39,732 nt of DNA. It comes from Halorubrum sp. DM2 (GTDB lineage Archaea; Halobacteriota; Halobacteria; Halobacteriales; Haloferacaceae). Both the position numbers and the translations under genes were made by a program. Numbering within the stretch: position 1 is the first letter of the stretch; the number at the start of each line of letters is the position of its first letter. The notes under the pieces were generated by a model, which was not told the DNA's origin, ran no database searches, and saw only the letters and a program-made list of their open reading frames with translations. The stretch spans positions 1,073,848 through 1,113,579 of the forward strand of contig NZ_LR594487.1 of the NCBI RefSeq assembly GCF_901686465.1. The letters are read 5' to 3'. Positions 16,050-31,954 of this stretch are shown here, one piece after another.

Positions 16050-18635
16050 GTGCCATTTCCCCGCGCGAAATCATCTCGTCAACTCTACGAAGAAGTGAAA
16101 TCGTACGATCGGGTGATTGTCCCGGACGGGCCACTCGCGAGCGCGCTTAACCGCCAACTCGATCGGCCACACCTCGGTCCATTCGCGATCCCGCCACGTC
16201 GGCTTGCGGTCGGTCGCCGGCAAGAATCCGAGGACCGGCTTGCGTTCCTCGGTATGATAGCCAACGAGGACATCTCGTGGAAACGGTGTGCTTACGCGGT
16301 CGGTAATATCCTCCAGTGTTGGGAACACCAGGGGACACACGATGCGATTTTCGAGTACGATGCCTATCTCGACGACGCCACCGAACGAGCAGTTGAGCGC
16401 ATCGCAGAACTCGAAACTGCCTCAATGAAGCTCACAAACGAGACTATCGATCCGGATCTCGACGTGGTGGTTGTCGAACCGGAGATGCTTACCCAGCTCG
16501 AACAAGCGTATCTGCCTGCTGCGTACGACACTGTTAGCCTCTTCACTGATCGCGAATTCGAGTTACCAGCGTTCCGTATTCATAACTCACCAACAGCGAT
16601 CGTCGAAACGGTCGTCAATTCAATCACTGAAGCGAACGCGGAGAATGTCGGGATCGTACTCGATCAAGGAAGTGAGTACTCGCCGCTCATCGAGTCTGCG
16701 CTCGAAGCAGCTGACATTCCGTTCTTCGGTGGTCCAGGCTTTATCGATCGTGGTGAACATCGGTTGTTCCTCCACTTCCTCCGAACTGCCCACCGAGGGA
16801 CCGATACTCGAATAAGCGAGATTCGATCGCTGTTGACAGCATTCGACTGTGCTGTTGCCGACCGTGATTCAGAGAAGCGTCTCCATGAACTGGACGATGG
16901 CGAATTGTCGTGGCTAATTGAGTTCAGCCACGATATTCAGCAGTACACGTTTTCGGACGCGCTCTCCACGTTTGAAAACCGCGCCGATGAGACGCTTGCT
17001 GGCTTTCAAGAGGAGTTGGAGACGCTTGGCATCGCCGACGAGTCCGTCACAGAAGCCCGGCTCGATGAATTATCGTTCTATCTCCAGACGTATGAGGTGC
17101 CTGTCGACCGAGACAATGAAGGTGTACTGCTCGCCGATGCGAAGTCGGCATCATACGTCGGTCGAGAGGTTGTCTTCTACTTAGGTCTCGACGAGCGGTG
17201 GACACACTCGGCACCACGTCGCCCGTGGGTTGATCAGGATGCTCAGTTTACGCGGAATATCAAGAGCTTCCAGTTGCTGTTACAGAGCGGCAGCCAGCAA
17301 CACTATCTTGTTCAAGATTCGACTGGTGGGGCCGCTGTCACTCCGTGTCTGTACTTCGAAGAGCTCCTCGAAGAAGAGTACGAATCCTTCTCCGACTTGT
17401 CATCGACTACTCACCACACACATTCCGAACCACACGACGGGGCTGTATTCGACACAGAGCCCGTTGATGTGGACTCCAAGCCCGTCGAGACGATCAGTAA
17501 GTCGAGTCTCAACACCTACGTGAACTCTCCGCGGGACTACTACTTTAGCCGGATCGTCGACGGCCCAGAGAAGGATTATCTCACAGAGGGCAACTTACTC
17601 CATAATTTTGCGGAATTCTATGTCAACCACCCAGCTGTCATCGATGATGCGGCACTCACGAAGGTTGTCGATCTCATGCTAGATGAGGTCCGCCCGCTCG
17701 TCCGTTCTGTCGACGAACAGACGCGCCGTACCGAGTACCGTGCAAGCCTCGAAACAATTGTCTCGTATCTCGAGGAAAACCCCCCGCCGGATGGGGCATT
17801 CCTTACACCCGCCAGCAAAGGTGAGAACACCGTTGCCGCTCACTTCGGTCACGACATTGACTCTCCTGTGACTGAGCGCCGGTTCACTGACGACAGTTTG
17901 GGCATCAACGGGATGATTGACCTCGTCCAGTCGGAAACCGAACTGCTTGATTACAAAAGCGGCAGTGAAAACAGCGCTAATTCGATAGTCAAAGACGCTG
18001 CGATCGACGAGCCGACAGACGAACCTGACTTTCAGGCATTGTTGTATCTAACCTATTGGCGGTCACAAACGCCTGCTGAGCAGCTCTCATTCACGTTCTT
18101 CTATGTTACCGAGCTCGTCGACGACATGATCGCTGGCGATGGTACTCTCGATGACGCACTGACCACGATAACATACTATCCTGAATCGCTTACTGAACAC
18201 GTCCAAACTGAATCGTTCTTCGAGTACCTTCGTGAGGAGGGAGCAAACAAGTGCCAGAAGATCCTCTCGAAGATTGACTATCAGACGTACGCTGCCGTCT
18301 TTGATGCCGCACCGCTCGTTGAGACGACAGATAGCGACGAACTCATCGAATCAGCGTTCGGCCAGACAATGATTAAGCGGCTTGAATCAGAAATTGGCGA
18401 GTACAAGTACGTTAAGACGGGGAGTAAACAGGTCATGCGAGAGATTGCTCGGCAGCAGAAGGGCGCGTTCTTCGAACCTGATTTTGATGCATTCGAGTCG
18501 TTCGTCGAGGAGCGATTGACAGAGCTCAACCGGCGTCGGACTGGCGATGAGTCCTTCCCTATCGAGGGTCTTGCCGGCGAGCCGAATTACCGACGGGTGG
18601 ATAATCGTGATTTGCTCTTGGAGGGTGACCAATGA
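16050..18635 (+). CDS. AddB-like PD-(D/E)XK nuclease subunit
   Basis: 861 aa starting at GTG. The N-terminal two thirds resemble an inactivated UvrD-like scaffold as in AddB (no Walker A is seen). The C-terminus holds a RecB-family nuclease: SKSSLNTYVNSPRDYYFSR, then a GNLLHNF helix, then GINGMIDLV followed by LLDYKSGS (the Asp and Asp-Tyr-Lys motif). The AddB iron-sulfur cysteine pattern is not seen. Its last bases overlap the next gene (ATGA), which encodes the helicase partner, so the two are translationally coupled. The pair probably processes double-strand DNA ends for recombination or degrades foreign linear DNA. Confidence 0.8.
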   Translation: MPFPRAKSSRQLYEEVKSYDRVIVPDGPLASALNRQLDRPHLGPFAIPPRRLAVGRRQESEDRLAFLGMIANEDISWKRCAYAVGNILQCWEHQGTHDAIFEYDAYLDDATERAVERIAELETASMKLTNETIDPDLDVVVVEPEMLTQLEQAYLPAAYDTVSLFTDREFELPAFRIHNSPTAIVETVVNSITEANAENVGIVLDQGSEYSPLIESALEAADIPFFGGPGFIDRGEHRLFLHFLRTAHRGTDTRISEIRSLLTAFDCAVADRDSEKRLHELDDGELSWLIEFSHDIQQYTFSDALSTFENRADETLAGFQEELETLGIADESVTEARLDELSFYLQTYEVPVDRDNEGVLLADAKSASYVGREVVFYLGLDERWTHSAPRRPWVDQDAQFTRNIKSFQLLLQSGSQQHYLVQDSTGGAAVTPCLYFEELLEEEYESFSDLSSTTHHTHSEPHDGAVFDTEPVDVDSKPVETISKSSLNTYVNSPRDYYFSRIVDGPEKDYLTEGNLLHNFAEFYVNHPAVIDDAALTKVVDLMLDEVRPLVRSVDEQTRRTEYRASLETIVSYLEENPPPDGAFLTPASKGENTVAAHFGHDIDSPVTERRFTDDSLGINGMIDLVQSETELLDYKSGSENSANSIVKDAAIDEPTDEPDFQALLYLTYWRSQTPAEQLSFTFFYVTELVDDMIAGDGTLDDALTTITYYPESLTEHVQTESFFEYLREEGANKCQKILSKIDYQTYAAVFDAAPLVETTDSDELIESAFGQTMIKRLESEIGEYKYVKTGSKQVMREIARQQKGAFFEPDFDAFESFVEERLTELNRRRTGDESFPIEGLAGEPNYRRVDNRDLLLEGDQ

Positions 18636-21481
18636 GCGACGTTACGCCAAACCCGGAGCAACGCGACCTTATTGAGTCAACCGACGGCCTGTATCTCGTC
18701 GACGCTGGTGCTGGCACCGGGAAGACCTTCACCGTCACCCGACGATATGCGAACATCGTCGATAAGGACGGGATCGATCCGTCTGATGTCCTGTTGGTGA
18801 CGTTCACGAACAACGCAGCTGCGGAAATGCGAGAACGGATCGTGCGGAACAGCGAGTATGGAATGCGGGAACTTTCGAATGCCCCGATCCAGACGTTCCA
18901 CTCGTTGGCACACGATATTCTCGACGAACACGGCCATGATGCTCCGACACACCTCGGGGTTGAGGAGACGATCACCGGCTCAACCCGAATTATCGAAGAC
19001 GACATCATCGAACAGGCACTGTTTCGTGAATTTATCGGCCAGTTCATTGATTCACACCCGGAGTACGATGAGTTCTTCACCGCGATCTCGGAGACGACAG
19101 AACTGCTCGATCTCATCAAAGAACTGTCTGCGAAGGGTGTGTTTCCGACCGCAAACGGGTGGTACCGCGACGGCGAGTCACACCTTGACGGTGACTTTGA
19201 GGCATTCGAGACGCTGTTTACCGATCTGAATGCGCCTCGAAACGGTGGAAGCAAGCAGTCGAAGCTCCGCGAGAAGCTCAACGACTACGGGACAGAGAAA
19301 ACCTACCTTCCGGAGGCCCCAGAGCAGTGGGAGCTTCGCGGGAACGGCAAACAGATTCCAGCGGATGTCGCCGGACGCGTTTTTGAGGACGATCGAACAG
19401 CACTCAAGCAGTTCGTCCACGATGTGTATCACGCCTACCTTGAGTTTGCGCTTCGACGGAACTACCTGAACTTCGGGTTCCTTCAGCTGTTTGCGTTCGT
19501 CCTTCTGTGTGAAGACCACGATCTTCGAGAGCGACTGGGGTACGAGTATGTGATGGTCGACGAGTTCCAGGACTCCAGTGAGATCCAGTTCAAACTCATG
19601 CTTCTTCTGGCCGGCACAGAGAATATCTGTGTGGTCGGTGACTGGAAGCAAAGCATCTACAGCTTCCAATACGCCGACGTCGATAACATCCGTGAGTTCG
19701 ACGATCGACTCCAGCGGTTCGCCGAAGAGCTGAACCGGGACGCAGATCGCGTCACGTTCCCGACGACGGCGGCTACCAGCAAACAACTGACACGGAACTA
19801 CCGGTCAACCCAATCTATCCTGCGGTTCTCGACACAGGCGCTGACGGCTCGTGCGACGAACAGTGAGTTACTCGATGTTGAGGCCATCTCCGAGGCGGTC
19901 ACACGGTTGAAGGCGGACACAGACCATGACGAGAGCCGTATCGAGGCGCTCACAAGTGAGGATGAACACGAGGCGATTCTCGCGAAAATCGACGACATCG
20001 TCGACAACGATGACTACGCCGTTGAGGGTGACGATGGTGAGTACCGCGCGCCGAAGTACGGTGATATCGCCGTATTGACCCGAACCCGCGATTTCGGACG
20101 GGACATACTCGACACGGCAAGCGAATACAACCTGCCGATGGCCTACGAGGGAGGGATCGAGGTCTTCAGAACCGATGCTGCGAAGTTGCTGTTAGCGTGG
20201 CTCCGCATCCTCGAACGTGACGCCGACCGTGGTTGGGCACTCGTCTTAGAAGAGGCCGGATACACGATCGACGAGGTGAAAGCGATCACCGATCGCGGGA
20301 CGTACCCTGAAGAGATGGTTGCCTTCCGTGAAACCCTTCGAGAGATGGAGACATTCGGGGGTGTCGCCCGTCGCGTGTTCGATCGGTACGACCAGAGTGG
20401 TCCAACCGCGGACGTTGTACTTGACACGATTCAGTCGGTTCACGGGACGACAACGTTCACTCGTGGAGAGCTCATCCAGTTTATCGAAGCCGCGATTGAA
20501 GACGGCAGCACCGATGAGGTTGACGCTGGTGCGGGGATGAATGCGGTGACTGTTCAGACCATCCACGCAACGAAAGGGCTCGAATATCCGATTGTCATCC
20601 TCGCGAATATGAACACGAACAAGTTCCCATCAACTGGTGGCAGCGGGAGCGATATCGCGTACACAGATCCAATCGGACTCCGACAGCGGAAGGTGTACTC
20701 TGAAGAGGCTCACGATGTCCCACACGTCTACCACAACTGGCAGTCAGACGTTCTCAATAAGTGTCTCCCTCAGAACTACGATGAGGAACGCCGACTGCTC
20801 TACGTGGCTATTACGCGTGCTGAGAGCCACGTCATTCTAACCGGCGGTGAGAATCCAAATGTGTTCCTTGATGAACTCCCCGTTAATATCGAAACAGTCG
20901 ACCCGGATCTGTCGTCCTTCAGCGCAGTAGATAACGAGTCATCACCGTTTACCGTTGACATTCCGGATCCTGATGGGCCAGCAAGCTACTCTCCGCATAC
21001 GTTCATCGATGATGCCGTTTTCGAAGGGGATACCGGTGGTCGAGGGATGGAATTCGGATCGGAGGTCCACGAGTTCGCAGAGCGGTATGTGCTTGGTGAG
21101 ACTGTCGACACCGGTGACAACTCCGATAAGGAGAACGTACGGGACTTCTTGGAGTCACTCGACGGCGAGAAGATCGCCGAAATCGATGCGTTCCTCCCGC
21201 TGACCGTCGACGACGAGGAAGTGACGATCGGTGGGATCATCGACCTGCTCCACGTTACTCCTGACCACGTTGACATCGTCGACTACAAGACCGATCTCTC
21301 GACTCACGCCGAAGAGGAGTATACGAAGCAACTCAGTATCTACTACCACGTTGTCGTCGACCAATATCCAGATCGGTCGGTCTCTGCTTCGATCTTCTAC
21401 ACCGATAATGGTGACCGTGGTGAGATTGAACCTCTCAGTAGATCGGAGCTCAAAGAGTTAGTCCGAACTCACAGAGCGTAA
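18632..21481 (+). CDS. AddA-like UvrD/Rep helicase with C-terminal nuclease
   Basis: 949 aa. Superfamily 1A helicase motifs are in order: Walker A AGAGTGKT (25-32), Walker B VDEFQDSS with D310-E311, motif III GDWKQSIYSFQYAD, motif IV RNYRSTQSIL, motif V IHATKGLEYPIV and motif VI LLYVAITRAESH. The last 150 residues carry a RecB-type nuclease: GSEVHEFAERY, then GGIIDLL and VDIVDYKTDLS. This is the AddA arrangement (helicase plus nuclease). The start overlaps the stop of the AddB-like gene by four bases. With it, it likely forms a two-nuclease end-resection complex. Confidence 0.88.
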   Translation: MSDVTPNPEQRDLIESTDGLYLVDAGAGTGKTFTVTRRYANIVDKDGIDPSDVLLVTFTNNAAAEMRERIVRNSEYGMRELSNAPIQTFHSLAHDILDEHGHDAPTHLGVEETITGSTRIIEDDIIEQALFREFIGQFIDSHPEYDEFFTAISETTELLDLIKELSAKGVFPTANGWYRDGESHLDGDFEAFETLFTDLNAPRNGGSKQSKLREKLNDYGTEKTYLPEAPEQWELRGNGKQIPADVAGRVFEDDRTALKQFVHDVYHAYLEFALRRNYLNFGFLQLFAFVLLCEDHDLRERLGYEYVMVDEFQDSSEIQFKLMLLLAGTENICVVGDWKQSIYSFQYADVDNIREFDDRLQRFAEELNRDADRVTFPTTAATSKQLTRNYRSTQSILRFSTQALTARATNSELLDVEAISEAVTRLKADTDHDESRIEALTSEDEHEAILAKIDDIVDNDDYAVEGDDGEYRAPKYGDIAVLTRTRDFGRDILDTASEYNLPMAYEGGIEVFRTDAAKLLLAWLRILERDADRGWALVLEEAGYTIDEVKAITDRGTYPEEMVAFRETLREMETFGGVARRVFDRYDQSGPTADVVLDTIQSVHGTTTFTRGELIQFIEAAIEDGSTDEVDAGAGMNAVTVQTIHATKGLEYPIVILANMNTNKFPSTGGSGSDIAYTDPIGLRQRKVYSEEAHDVPHVYHNWQSDVLNKCLPQNYDEERRLLYVAITRAESHVILTGGENPNVFLDELPVNIETVDPDLSSFSAVDNESSPFTVDIPDPDGPASYSPHTFIDDAVFEGDTGGRGMEFGSEVHEFAERYVLGETVDTGDNSDKENVRDFLESLDGEKIAEIDAFLPLTVDDEEVTIGGIIDLLHVTPDHVDIVDYKTDLSTHAEEEYTKQLSIYYHVVVDQYPDRSVSASIFYTDNGDRGEIEPLSRSELKELVRTHRA

Positions 21482-28269: not shown

Positions 28270-29928
28270 CTAGCGAACGTCGGGGTTCTCCACGCGGAGG
28301 TCGTAGTCTTCGCCAGTGTCTAGGTCGACGTAGTCGCCGAGACCGACTGTCCGGCCCTTCTCGCAGTCGTCCTTACAGCGGGTGCGGCGGTCGCCGTCCG
28401 CCGTCTGCCACTGTATCTCCCCCGTGCTCGGTCGGTAGACCTGGCGCCCCGCGAACGTCGATGTCGACGTCCCGACGACGAGCGCCTGGAACCGCTCCAT
28501 CATTAGCGACGCCACCAGTCCGTTTGTCGTCACAACGCTTGGGTCACGCAGCTCGTCGCTGCCGTCGTCAGCCTCGCCGGGTTCCCGTTGTACGTACAGC
28601 CCACCGTTGTCCGCGCGGTCCTGAGGTGGCTGTCGGTCCCGGACGACCCCAGATCGTCGGTCGCCCTGCTTCCACGCTCCGAGGCAGTGGAGGCATGCCA
28701 TACCTGGGCCAGCGGTCTCGACTGTCGACCGCGCACCCGCCGCGAGCTTGTCAGTCTCCTCGTCGACCTGGAGGTGCGTCCCACCGGAGACAACGGGTAT
28801 GAGGTGGGCGTAGGCCACCCGGTCGACGACCTTCTGGACCCAGTGCGGGTCCGCGGCGTTCAGGATGATGTCACAGTCCAGCACTGCGCCGAGCGCGCTG
28901 TGGTCTTTGTTGGCGTCCTCGATGATGCTGCCGTGGACTGCTCGTGCTTGGAATCCGGGTGCTGTCGCGGCCTCTTCGGCGATGTTACGGGCGAGATCGG
29001 CCTTCCGGACGTTCGACCGGGCGTCCTCTCGGGACGCGCCGTAGGCGCGGTTCAGGTTTGCCCCCTTCAGGTGATCGAAGTCAACGAATATGGCGCCACC
29101 AACGCCTAGGCGCGCGATCTGCTCAGCGAGTAGTGACCCGACACCGCCACACCCGACGACGGCCACGCGGATACCACTGAGACGGGCCTGCCCACGTTCA
29201 CCCCACAGTTCGAGCGTGCTGTCGTGGGCGACCGTCCCCGACCCAAGGCCGGGACCGGCGGGCCCTTGTGCGCTGAAGGTGGTTTCGAACTTCTCGAGGA
29301 ATGGCCCGTTCCGAAGCTTCTCGACGGGAGACGTACCGAGCACGCGCACGGCGGTTGCCTCCGTCTTCTCCGGAGGGCTGCCAGTAGTGAAGTCGTAGGC
29401 GCGGAAGCTCCACTCTGGCTGGTCGGTTTCCCGCCGAGGTTTGCTTGCGATGATGCCGGCGCCGAATGGGCGGTCAGCCCCGAGACGTTCGGCGTTGGAT
29501 TCAAGCCGCATCGGGTCTGCCTCTAGGTCCGGCTTGGAGGGATACGCGCTCCATCCCGGATGGGAGTGGAAGTATGCGATACCCTTCCGCGGGTCGTGCT
29601 CGATGGTAGTCGCTGCTCGCGCTCGGTATGCCGGACTGAGCTTCAGGCTCCCGTCCCGGACATGGACATCGTTCTCTGTCTGGGGCGGGACGACGTCGTC
29701 GACGATGTATGTGACTCGGGAGTCACCAGTGCTGCGCGTGAGGGTCGTAATCACGCCCTGTTCGTAGCGGTCGGGCTGGTACTTGGACCCCTCTGGCTGC
29801 CGATCAGCGTACTCAGGTCGGAGGTGGCCGTACAGCGTCTGCTGGATGTCCTGGGTCATGGCAACATGGAACTCCGCAGCATCCCCGACAGGATAGGGAT
29901 CTGGGAGCGCGTCGTCGCGGCCGCTCAT
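28270..29928 (-). CDS. JAB/JAMM protease fused to E1-like ThiF adenylation domain
   Basis: 552 aa. Residues about 20-185 form a JAB/JAMM isopeptidase: H121-S-H123-P followed by S131-K-P-D134, the complete zinc motif. Residues about 240-420 form an E1/ThiF Rossmann domain: VVGCGGVGS (257-265), FVDFDHLKGANLNR (281-294) and ILNAADP near 356. CxxC (412, 415) and CxxxC (518, 522) can bind structural zinc. One protein could thus trim or remove a ubiquitin-like modifier (JAB) and also activate its C-terminus with ATP (E1). The first four bases overlap the stop of the E2-like gene. This is the last gene of the Ubl operon. Confidence 0.9.
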   Translation of the reverse strand: MSGRDDALPDPYPVGDAAEFHVAMTQDIQQTLYGHLRPEYADRQPEGSKYQPDRYEQGVITTLTRSTGDSRVTYIVDDVVPPQTENDVHVRDGSLKLSPAYRARAATTIEHDPRKGIAYFHSHPGWSAYPSKPDLEADPMRLESNAERLGADRPFGAGIIASKPRRETDQPEWSFRAYDFTTGSPPEKTEATAVRVLGTSPVEKLRNGPFLEKFETTFSAQGPAGPGLGSGTVAHDSTLELWGERGQARLSGIRVAVVGCGGVGSLLAEQIARLGVGGAIFVDFDHLKGANLNRAYGASREDARSNVRKADLARNIAEEAATAPGFQARAVHGSIIEDANKDHSALGAVLDCDIILNAADPHWVQKVVDRVAYAHLIPVVSGGTHLQVDEETDKLAAGARSTVETAGPGMACLHCLGAWKQGDRRSGVVRDRQPPQDRADNGGLYVQREPGEADDGSDELRDPSVVTTNGLVASLMMERFQALVVGTSTSTFAGRQVYRPSTGEIQWQTADGDRRTRCKDDCEKGRTVGLGDYVDLDTGEDYDLRVENPDVR

Positions 29929-30509
29929 GCTGTTCCCTCCGTTTCGTCCAGCCGCAGGAGAAACTGCACGAGAGTGTGGGCATCGGCGAGGTCACGCATC
30001 CGCGTCGGCTGGCGGTTCATTTTTGCCCACCGCCAACTGAACGCTATTCCACTGTCTTCGTCAGCGACCTCCAGAACTTTCTCGACCTTGTCGTAGTGGC
30101 TGCCATTTGGGTCTGCGAACGTACTACGGCATTGGATGTCGCCGACATCCTGGCCGTCGACGGTAACGGCGGGCGCCATGATGACCCAGTGTGGGTCGCT
30201 CCCATCAAACGACTGGTCGACGAGTATGTAGAGCTCTGCGCTAGAGTCGTCCCATCGCTCGCAGTATGTGTGGAGGTCGTACTCGCCAAGCCAGATCAGC
30301 GCCTGGTTACCGTCGGTGTCGACGACGGTCGGCTGGCCATGTGTGCTGTCGCGCTCGCGCCTGAGCGCGTGTACAGCGCCTTTGAAGTCGTCATCCAGAC
30401 GCTCGTCTGGAACGGTGGCCGGCGGGATCGGGCACGTCTCATTGTAGTTACCCCCGTACCCGTCGCTGTCGCCCGCCTCCGTGGCAGTCTGGTCTTCGTC
30501 GACGGCCAT
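29925..30509 (-). CDS. E2-like (ubiquitin-conjugating-fold) protein
   Basis: 194 aa from the ATG at 30509, one base after the Ubl gene stop; the in-frame start at 30566 would overlap it by 56 bases. After a polar N-terminus the pattern follows prokaryotic E2-like proteins: a strand with LYILVDQSFDGSDPHWVIMA, PAVTVDGQ, then AFSWRWAKMN and DLADAHTLVQFLLR near the end. The possible catalytic Cys are C127 in DIQCRST and C83 in HTYCERW; neither is certain. The call rests on the layout of this fold and on its position between Ubl and E1 genes. If correct it transfers the activated Ubl to target proteins or lipids. Confidence 0.6.
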   Translation of the reverse strand: MAVDEDQTATEAGDSDGYGGNYNETCPIPPATVPDERLDDDFKGAVHALRRERDSTHGQPTVVDTDGNQALIWLGEYDLHTYCERWDDSSAELYILVDQSFDGSDPHWVIMAPAVTVDGQDVGDIQCRSTFADPNGSHYDKVEKVLEVADEDSGIAFSWRWAKMNRQPTRMRDLADAHTLVQFLLRLDETEGTA

Positions 30510-30510
30510 G

Positions 30511-31083
30511 TCAGGCGTTGCCCGGAGTGCGGGGCTGGCTTGTGAACCGTTCGACGCCAGGGTCACTAAGGTCCACCTCGTCCGTGCCGCTGTAGGTGTT
30601 CTCAGTGCCGACCTCGACGAGTGCGTCGTCGGTGTTCTTGCCGAACCGCGAGAGGATTGACTCGGCGGTCGGGGTGGCCTCGTCGAAGAACTCGACGGGG
30701 GCGTTGTCGACTTTCACACCGTACTGGTCGCGTGCGTCGACGGCGCGGTCCTCGATGGTTTCGATGGTGTCCTCAAGATCCTCTACCTTGCGGAAGAGGT
30801 CGGGGTCGACGCCGGCAGTCGTGAGCGTCTCCTGCAGGTCGTTGACGTCGTCCTGCGTGGCTTGGACATCCGCTTCGAAGTCGCTGGGGAGAGTCCCGTC
30901 GACGTGCTCCACGGTGTCCTCTAGGCCTTCCACATCGTCCTCGACAGTCTCGAGGGCGACGAGTGCGTTCGCGGGAATATCGTCTTCGACAGACTCGATG
31001 ATGTCCTGGCCGCTCTGGATGGACTCAGCGAGGTCGTCGAGCTCTACAACTTCGGTCGTACCGTTGGCGGGATCGTCACTCAT
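30511..31083 (-). CDS. Ubiquitin-like protein with N-terminal coiled coil (multiubiquitin-domain family)
   Basis: 190 aa from the ATG at 31083, preceded by a GGGAG ribosome-binding-like stretch. Residues 12-115 are acidic heptads, a coiled coil. Residues 121-183 form a beta-grasp domain matching the multiubiquitin family: YGVKVDNAPVEFF, TPTAESILSRFGK, DALVEVGTEN and VDLSDPGVERFTS. The C-terminus ends TPGNA, so removal of the last two residues by the JAB domain would expose a Gly, as ubiquitin-like modifiers need. It is a single domain rather than the tandem copies of many family members. First gene of the Ubl, E2-like, JAB-E1 operon. Confidence 0.8.
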   Translation of the reverse strand: MSDDPANGTTEVVELDDLAESIQSGQDIIESVEDDIPANALVALETVEDDVEGLEDTVEHVDGTLPSDFEADVQATQDDVNDLQETLTTAGVDPDLFRKVEDLEDTIETIEDRAVDARDQYGVKVDNAPVEFFDEATPTAESILSRFGKNTDDALVEVGTENTYSGTDEVDLSDPGVERFTSQPRTPGNA

Positions 31084-31954
31084 GTTAATCTCCCGTCGCC
31101 TTTGACCCGGCGACGTTGGGCCGACCGTAAGGCCGCAGCCGCCGCTGTGACGGACTCGAGTACGGGATGAGCGACACAGACGTGTCACTCGCGGCCCGAG
31201 CGTTCGGTCCGTCTGCGGGCGAGCATGCCGGAGAGATCATCGCCGGTCGCCCCGACTCTCTCAGCGGTCGTGGTAATTCCCGCCGTCCTCCTGCCGCGCT
31301 CGGCGCGCGGTGGGCAGGGGATGCCTACGTAGCGGTGGGATACCAACCCGTCCAAGCGTAGCTGACCCCCATTAAAAAAGCTTTTGCCGTATGGTGATTC
31401 TGTTCGACAGTAAGTATAAGTAACGGGGGTGGGTGGTTGCGTTTTCACTTTCACCCCGCTACCGTAACCTTTTATATAGGAATGTACGGCAGGATTCGCT
31501 GCTGATGCTCTGTGTAAGAATGACAGCTACAGCTACTGAGCGTGGCGGTTTGGTGGGTAGCAATTGACTACCCACCGCTACGTAGGCAAACGTCTCTAAT
31601 TCCCCGATGTTAATAAGATTACCGGGGACCCTCCGCCTTCCTGTGATTTCGACTGGAAACGAAAGGGGGTTCAGCTGATATAAAAGGACATCGCAACCCC
31701 CAGTGAAACTGAATCGACACCTAACAGTTAAGTTACGAACGACACGAAACGTTCACGACTTCTTTTTCTCACAACGGATGTCTAACAAAACATGAGGAAA
31801 TATGCCAAATTCCAGTCGGTTACATAAAAATCCGCTCTTGTATTCGATTCGATATTGGTCCCATTACGAGAAATAAGTCATAACCTATCCAATACCGGAT
31901 CGACTACAAATCATTATGAGCAAGCAGGACCACCACCACTGTAGTTGATACGAT
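31084..31954. other. 870-base gene-poor region upstream of the Ubl operon
   Basis: No gene is supported here. A 64-codon plus-strand frame (31167-31361) lies antisense to the Ubl leader and has no family resemblance. The region also holds TATA-like AT stretches (TTTTATATAGG near 31470) and the hairpin at 31552-31576. It probably carries promoters for the divergent Ubl operon and RHH gene. Confidence 0.45.
31552..31576. repeat. Inverted repeat, 9-bp arms
   Basis: GGTGGGTAG (31552-31560) and CTACCCACC (31568-31576) are perfect reverse complements around a 7-base loop. It lies in the long gene-free stretch between the Ubl operon and the RHH gene. It could be an operator or a stem-loop of an untranslated RNA. 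Confidence 0.7.

What the first reader, a model, noticed from the sequence alone, without database searches (positions are those of the whole stretch)
28270..31083. Complete ubiquitin-like conjugation operon in a haloarchaeon: coiled-coil Ubl, E2-like, JAB-E1 fusion
Three genes are translationally packed (1-base gap, 4-base overlap): a coiled-coil protein ending in a beta-grasp domain matching the multiubiquitin family, an E2-like protein, and a single protein carrying both a complete JAMM motif (HSHP...S..D) and an E1 Rossmann/ThiF domain. Haloarchaea are known for SAMP modifiers with one E1 (UbaA) and no E2. Bacterial Bil and CBASS Cap2/Cap3 systems have E1 and JAB on separate proteins or fuse E2 to E1. 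Here JAB and E1 are fused, the Ubl has a long coiled coil, and no CD-NTase is present. This would be a distinct modification pathway. It is surrounded by defence genes, so an anti-virus or mobile-element role is plausible but unproven.
Basis: partly seen in the sequence, partly recalled or inferred. Interest (0 to 1): 0.87.

Follow-up and report, generated by a model that had tools for sequence, protein, structure and literature searches.

The report
Archaeal ubiquitin-like operon with paired RNAs
A salt-loving archaeon carries a three-gene ubiquitin-like tagging operon of a kind so far described from bacteria (Bub), with an E2-like partner that keeps a serine where ordinary E2 enzymes have a cysteine; in front of it lies an undescribed structured RNA leader with a matching short segment, probably a small RNA that pairs with it.

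Summary
The three overlapping genes are real and the domain calls are broadly right, but the "distinct pathway" claim is not. JAB fused N-terminally to E1, an E2/RWD-like protein without the catalytic Cys, and a multiubiquitin-type Ubl is operon type 6e of Iyer et al. 2006, now studied as the bacterial Bub pathway (PDB: Citrobacter BubB, BubCD). The window's operon belongs to a haloarchaeal clade (16 of 391 genomes, mostly on plasmids), sister to actinobacterial plasmid loci. All 10 aligned haloarchaeal E2-like proteins lack a conserved Cys and share one invariant Ser (S158), aligned with the BubB WSRH serine. The E1 keeps its adenylation and Zn residues but has no conserved catalytic Cys. The likely mechanism is JAMM trimming of the Ubl, adenylation, serine-dependent transfer, and JAMM reversal. 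New here: a ~270-nt structured, covarying leader upstream of the Ubl gene, and further upstream an 18-23-nt segment exactly complementary to it. Eight guide sequences differ between lineages, yet complementarity, position and an upstream TATA box are kept. This suggests a cognate sRNA-leader pair controlling the operon. It is absent from several other haloarchaeal operons and from the bacterial loci tested. No expression or function was tested.

The parts
30511..31083 (-). Ubl (BubA-like), 190 aa: N-terminal helical bundle/coiled coil (residues ~15-121) plus C-terminal multiubiquitin-type beta-grasp region (~122-182), tail ...RTPG-NA
   Evidence: homologous tails often GG plus 1-5 residues (GGG-NS, GG-YI, GG-VV, GG-PVWQ)
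29925..30509 (-). E2/RWD-like protein (BubB-like), 194 aa; no conserved Cys; invariant Ser158 in AFSWRW
28270..29928 (-). JAB (JAMM)-E1 fusion (BubCD-like), 552 aa; JAMM E56/H121/H123/S131/D134; adenylation G259-G264, D283, D285, N291, R294, K309, D360; Zn C412/C415/C518/C522
31084..31353 (-). structured RNA leader of the operon (approximate 5' end from TATA spacing; covariance model matches 31081-31363)
31322..31339 (-). leader segment CCCACCGCTACGTAGGCA, exact complement of the upstream guide
31372..31380 (-). TATA-like CTTTTTTAA of the leader (predicted promoter)
31552..31592 (-). 5' part of the proposed small RNA: guide TGCCTACGTAGCGGTGGG (31588-31571) running into hairpin GGTGGG...CCCACC
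31610..31617 (-). TATA-like CTTATTAA upstream of the guide; a TATA-like box lies at similar spacing in all lineages that have the guide

Best explanation
A haloarchaeal branch of the Bub (operon type 6e) ubiquitin-like conjugation pathway, spread on plasmids and islands. Proposed working: (1) the JAMM half of JAB-E1 trims the 2-5-residue tail of the Ubl precursor to expose its glycine [inferred from tails and motif]; (2) the E1 half adenylates that glycine [inferred from conserved adenylation residues]; (3) with no conserved catalytic Cys in E1 or E2, the Ubl passes to the invariant Ser of the E2-like protein or, with its help, straight to a target, by ester rather than thioester chemistry [inferred from the invariant Ser aligned with BubB]; (4) the JAMM domain can remove the modifier [inferred]; (5) the N-terminal coiled coil gathers Ubls into oligomers [inferred]. 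In about half of the distinct haloarchaeal loci, expression is probably set by an RNA pair: a small RNA starting about 500 nt upstream with an 18-23-nt guide at its 5' end pairs with the structured 5' leader of the operon [complementarity and leader structure shown; transcription and effect inferred]. The role is most likely stress- or virus-triggered defence, as suspected but not demonstrated for bacterial Bub.
For: Row 6e architecture in print. BubCD best PDB match E=1e-14; profile of the Ubl set (which includes 2 bacterial members) hits a multi-ubiquitin structure (9cd2, 1.8e-5). Ser158 invariant in 10/10 haloarchaeal E2-likes and aligned with BubB's serine, profile match 95.5% with 0/200 shuffles as good. 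E1 tree: haloarchaeal clade 100/100, sister to actinobacterial plasmid loci 99/98. No conserved Cys other than the Zn ligands and strand Cys352. Leader: 17 pairs with double changes, 32 double-change cells vs 14.9 shuffled (0/500); slid controls collapse from 91% to 35-47% paired. Full-length leader found only upstream of this operon in 391 genomes. Guide-leader complementarity in 8 distinct sequences, TATA at similar spacing, cognate duplex strongest in every row, guide occurs nowhere else in the genome. Negatives: no such repeat (11 nt or more) in 6 other haloarchaeal loci; 7 bacterial loci gave one 11-nt chance match.
Against: No activity, transcript or phenotype was tested. The Bub papers themselves (Ye 2026, Gong 2025) were not held, so the oxyester mechanism is recalled, not read. 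The haloarchaeal E2 set alone does not find BubB by hmmsearch. BubB's His two residues after the Ser, and the DUF6527/metal-binding gene of many bacterial operons, are missing here. AF2 did not resolve the beta-grasp or E2 parts. One sub-clade has HTQP in place of HxHP, so JAMM activity may be lost there. Five haloarchaeal groups lack the RNA pair.
Confidence: 0.8

Rival explanations
1. The E2-like protein is a catalytically dead adaptor (RWD/UEV-like), and the E1 adenylate is transferred directly to target, as in MccB- or SAMP-like chemistry.
For: Iyer 2006 called the 6e E2 domain inactive; no Cys; no BubB-type His in the haloarchaeal set.
Against: One Ser is the only invariant position besides Met1 in 10 diverged sequences; it aligns with an invariant Ser of BubB, and relatives of the same E2 family carry Cys at the matching column (C89 of A12 against the BubB Ser).
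Confidence: 0.35
2. The inverted complementary segments are DNA recombination sites of an invertible promoter (inverton), kept identical by recombination.
For: 18-23-nt near-perfect inverted repeats flanking ~150-410 bp with a promoter upstream of an operon fit an inverton; integrase genes lie near two loci (L039, L052).
Against: All 8 lineages have the same orientation; the flanking hairpin and TATA keep their place on each side; the right arm lies inside a covarying RNA structure; no recombinase is conserved with it.
Confidence: 0.12
3. The two arms are oppositely oriented operators for a co-evolving DNA-binding regulator.
For: Repeated protein sites also change together between lineages.
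Against: Complementarity runs over 18-23 nt with almost complete sequence change and no shared regulator gene; each arm sits just downstream of a predicted transcription start.
Confidence: 0.1
4. A CreTA-like crRNA-resembling RNA guides Cascade to repress the operon.
For: Known haloarchaeal precedent of a guide RNA repressing a neighbouring gene (PMC9458426, PMC8501985).
Against: No CRISPR repeat recognised around the guide and no consistent PAM next to the matched site (GGA, AGG, GGG, GAC, CGA; read).
Confidence: 0.05
5. The operon is a sulphur-carrier system of MoaD/ThiS type rather than protein tagging.
For: ThiF-family E1 with Zn cysteines.
Against: No rhodanese domain or biosynthetic neighbours; the host has other ThiF proteins over the Pfam cut-off; Ubl tails need processing.
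Confidence: 0.04

Closest known systems
Bub (bacterial ubiquitination-like) pathway; operon type 6e of Iyer et al. 2006; PDB 9ea4/9ea5/9eae/9eav (Citrobacter BubB, BubCD)
   Same: Ubl of multiubiquitin type, E2/RWD-like protein without Cys but with a conserved Ser, N-terminal JAB fused to E1, mobile-element setting
   Different: Archaeal; single Ubl domain often behind a coiled coil; E2 His motif lost; no DUF6527 partner; no CapH/CapP, CapW or CapK/CapS regulator seen; RNA leader and guide segment instead in part of the clade
Actinobacterial plasmid loci (Mycobacteroides, Rhodococcus, Nocardioides; L033, L034, L047)
   Same: Closest E1 clade (99/98); three-gene order Ubl - E2-like - JAB-E1, no DUF6527
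   Different: 1-2 Ubl domains, no coiled coil, ImmA/IrrE-type protease neighbours, no guide/leader pair found
Bil (BilABCD) and CBASS Cap2/Cap3
   Same: Ubl/E1/E2/JAB conjugation logic in prokaryotes
   Different: Thioester Cys in E1/E2 (literature, PMC11354881); JAB on a separate protein; CBASS also has a CD-NTase
SAMP/UbaA/HvJAMM1 of haloarchaea
   Same: Ubl tagging with JAMM reversal in haloarchaea
   Different: No E2; separate E1 and JAMM; different E1 lineage
CreTA (crRNA-like antitoxin of haloarchaea)
   Same: Guide RNA encoded next to the gene whose 5' region it matches
   Different: No CRISPR repeat or PAM recognised; pairing region lies in a structured leader

Membership tests
Bub / operon type 6e | JAB domain fused N-terminally to E1 | tested here: met
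   Pfam, motif and BubCD match
Bub / operon type 6e | Ubl of multiubiquitin family (1-3 repeats) | tested here: met
   8/15 members hit Multi_ubiq; window protein itself only below cut-off; profile-profile 92.5%
Bub / operon type 6e | E2/RWD-like protein without catalytic Cys, between Ubl and JAB-E1 | tested here: met
   Position and no conserved Cys; profile match to BubB/Prok-E2_E
Bub / operon type 6e | BubB motif W-S-x-H ... W-x-P | tested here: inconclusive
   Ser and a Trp kept, His and Pro not
Bub / operon type 6e | DUF6527 / metal-binding partner gene | tested here: not met
   No such gene in annotated haloarchaeal loci; also absent in actinobacterial relatives. Iyer 2006 gives two or three extra genes as usual, so I treat it as optional
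Bub / operon type 6e | Ester-linked Ubl transfer, protein conjugation | not testable with these tools
   needs biochemistry
Bil | E2 with catalytic Cys (CEHH) and separate JAB | tested here: not met
CBASS type II (Cap2/Cap3) | CD-NTase, E2-E1 fusion | tested here: not met
   E1 fused to JAB not E2; no CD-NTase among the window's larger genes examined
SAMP/UbaA | UbaA-type E1 with catalytic Cys | tested here: not met
   no conserved Cys outside Zn ligands and Cys352; SAMP E1 model only 29.9 bits vs 450 cut-off
Any Rfam family (leader or sRNA) | match to a covariance model | tested here: not met
   no match

The most novel reading that the evidence does not exclude
A ubiquitin-like conjugation operon controlled by a cognate RNA pair: a small RNA with a lineage-specific 18-23-nt 5' guide, encoded just upstream, pairs with a structured ~270-nt leader of the operon. 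The two co-vary completely between lineages, a mode of control not described for any prokaryotic ubiquitin-like pathway known to me.
Probability: 0.6. Interest if true: 0.83.

Novelty: new variant of a known kind. Interest (0 to 1): 0.7.

Why it matters
It extends the Bub ubiquitination-like pathway to haloarchaea, with an E2 that rests on one invariant serine, so that ester-based Ubl transfer can be tested in genetically tractable archaea whose other known modifier system (SAMP) uses no E2. If the guide/leader pair is an RNA switch, it would be the first RNA control of such a pathway that I know of and could show what triggers it, which is open for bacterial Bub (not shown to protect against phage, PMC13373217).

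Tried and rejected
Structure prediction of P0001 and P0002: only two-sequence alignments were permitted, so the E2 model (pLDDT 33) and the Ubl tail (about 42) are useless; no fold search was run on them. Viral contigs: two scans found no relative; phage records gave only remote ThiF matches. I first thought the short upstream ORFs might be conserved peptides; indels of 1, 2 and 4 bases in the alignment and the covariation argue for RNA. The A1 profile hit to BubB is not independent because A1 contained bacterial members; I rely on the separate-set comparison A6 versus A7 with shuffle controls. Short DNA matches of the leader elsewhere and weak model matches of 16-23 bits were judged chance GC-rich matches and not followed. 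The pair count on the extracted guide arms is partly circular, since the arms were picked for being complementary; the unbiased evidence is the repeat search with shuffles, fixed position and negative loci. My attempt to extract the host's other E1 proteins by longest frame failed and was not used.

Full report
1. What is there. The window lies in a complete single-contig 3.45-Mb haloarchaeal genome. P0003 carries ThiF (5.7e-28) and a weak Prok-JAB match (7e-4, under its cut-off) with a complete JAMM motif E56, H121, H123, S131, D134.

2. It is a family. P0003 homologues over most of their length occur in 16 of 391 evenly drawn halobacterial genomes; in the plasmid collection all 12 records covering at least 80% of the query are haloarchaeal plasmids. 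In every intact haloarchaeal locus read, a Ubl gene and an E2-like gene lie directly upstream in the same order. In the window's family it occurs in 4 of 170 genomes, and no other genome of its genus searched has a match, which fits horizontal spread. The E1 tree gives one haloarchaeal clade (100/100), sister to actinobacterial plasmid loci (99/98).

3. Which known system. Iyer, Burroughs and Aravind 2006 (PMC1779556) list operon type 6e: one to three Ub-like domains, a Cys-less E2/RWD-like protein, JAB fused N-terminally to E1, often a metal-binding protein. This is the architecture here. P0003's best solved relative is Citrobacter BubCD (1e-14), ahead of UBA5 and MoeB. PMC13373217 states that 544 bacterial Bub operons are known, many beside DNA-damage-responsive regulators, and that protection against phage has not been shown. 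The primary Bub papers (PMID 41184514, 40250427) were not held; that Bub uses ester intermediates is my recollection. Makarova and Koonin 2010 (PMC2948915) had already noted a Jab-E1 fusion in one methanogen.

4. Ubl. The window's Ubl alone matches Multi_ubiq only at 0.045, but 8 of 15 aligned members match it (best 1e-7), and its C-terminal part aligns to short haloarchaeal and bacterial Ubls at 92.5% (0 of 200 column shuffles as good). Tails such as GGG-NS, GG-YI, GG-VV and here PG-NA imply trimming, which a fused JAMM domain could perform (inference). The N-terminal half is a confidently predicted helical bundle; about half of the family lacks it.

5. E2-like protein. No member has a conserved Cys. 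In ten diverged haloarchaeal sequences the only invariant column besides Met1 is Ser158. A separate alignment of six BubB/Prok-E2_E proteins has invariant Ser and His (W-S-x-H); the two profiles match at 95.5%, E=1.5e-8, with the serines aligned, and no column-shuffled or reversed control comes close. Related archaeal systems (halo2 and methanogen-like loci) carry Cys in the column that matches the BubB Ser, which supports this position as the nucleophile. The haloarchaeal set does not align there directly with the Cys set, so this last step is transitive.

6. E1. Adenylation residues and Zn cysteines are kept; apart from the Zn ligands and the strand residue Cys352, no Cys is conserved in the clade.

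7. RNA leader. Upstream of the Ubl start the DNA of distant operons is 67-72% identical over about 250-300 nt, although the E1 proteins are about 35% identical. Indels are not in threes. The consensus fold has 75 pairs, 17 with changes on both sides; 32 double-change cells against 14.9 in shuffles (0 of 500), and slid structures fall to 35-47% paired. Rfam has no match. A DNA search and a covariance model over 391 genomes find the full element only in front of this operon; the model also finds the Halanaeroarchaeum leader, not in its training set, over its full length at the Ubl start, though weakly (12.1 bits, E=0.031).

8. Guide. In the window TGCCTACGTAGCGGTGGG (31588-31571) is the exact complement of leader segment 31339-31322 and occurs nowhere else in the genome with up to 2 mismatches. 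The same arrangement with other sequences is present in seven further lineages: 16-23 nt perfect, or with a single mismatch or wobble. In all of them a TATA-like box lies about 20-27 nt upstream of the guide and a GG-rich hairpin follows; the cognate duplex is the strongest in each row of a six-by-six matrix. Six other haloarchaeal loci have no such repeat of 11 nt or more, and seven bacterial loci gave one 11-nt chance match. I read this as a small RNA whose 5' end pairs with the 5' region of the operon leader. Transcription is inferred from TATA spacing only. Invertible promoter, paired operators and a CreTA-like guide are less likely but not excluded.

9. Surroundings. Pfam shows Type IIG Eco57I-like, OLD-like and Mrr-like genes, a PD-(D/E)XK/UvrD helicase-nuclease pair and an MCM in the window. 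Several plasmid relatives lie near Piwi, RNase H-like and helicase genes. This suggests but does not show defence.

10. Verdict. The operon is an archaeal variant of a known kind; the RNA pair in front of part of the clade is the new element.

Noticed in passing
L021, L022, L024, L026, L027, L030, L057 (halo2 loci): A second, separate haloarchaeal operon type: Ubl ending in ..FG, E2 with a conserved Cys (e.g. KYCIH, KWCIE) and a JAB-E1 fusion; E1 clade separate (100/100). One lies in the window's own genus (L024). I know of no description of a Cys-type E2 in haloarchaea.
   Followed up: partly
L058, L059, L061: Non-halobacterial archaea of the same phylum (probably methanogens) with Ubl fused to a Cys-type E2 (WFCTGH) followed by JAB-E1; the JAMM motif there reads HTHV/HTHP/HSHV.
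   Followed up: partly
L014, L016, L028, L029: Sub-clade of the haloarchaeal JAB-E1 has HTQP in place of HxHP, so the JAMM site has lost a metal ligand.
   Followed up: no
L017/L031 (G023:C5:20966-21630): A truncated, frameshifted JAB-E1 copy, about 66-82% identical to the window's, lies ~1.5 kb from an intact distant copy: operon turnover within one replicon.
   Followed up: no
L048:633-3176: A Piwi-domain (pAgo-like) gene shares the plasmid stretch with the operon in Salinirubellus.
   Followed up: no
window 16050-21481: PD-(D/E)XK nuclease and UvrD helicase pair (AddAB-like); a similar nuclease/helicase pair lies near the operon in L036 and L051.
   Followed up: no
window 31440-31480: A further TATA-like stretch (CTATATAAAAGG) with conserved GGGTGAAAGTGAAA downstream lies between the guide and leader promoters.
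   Followed up: no
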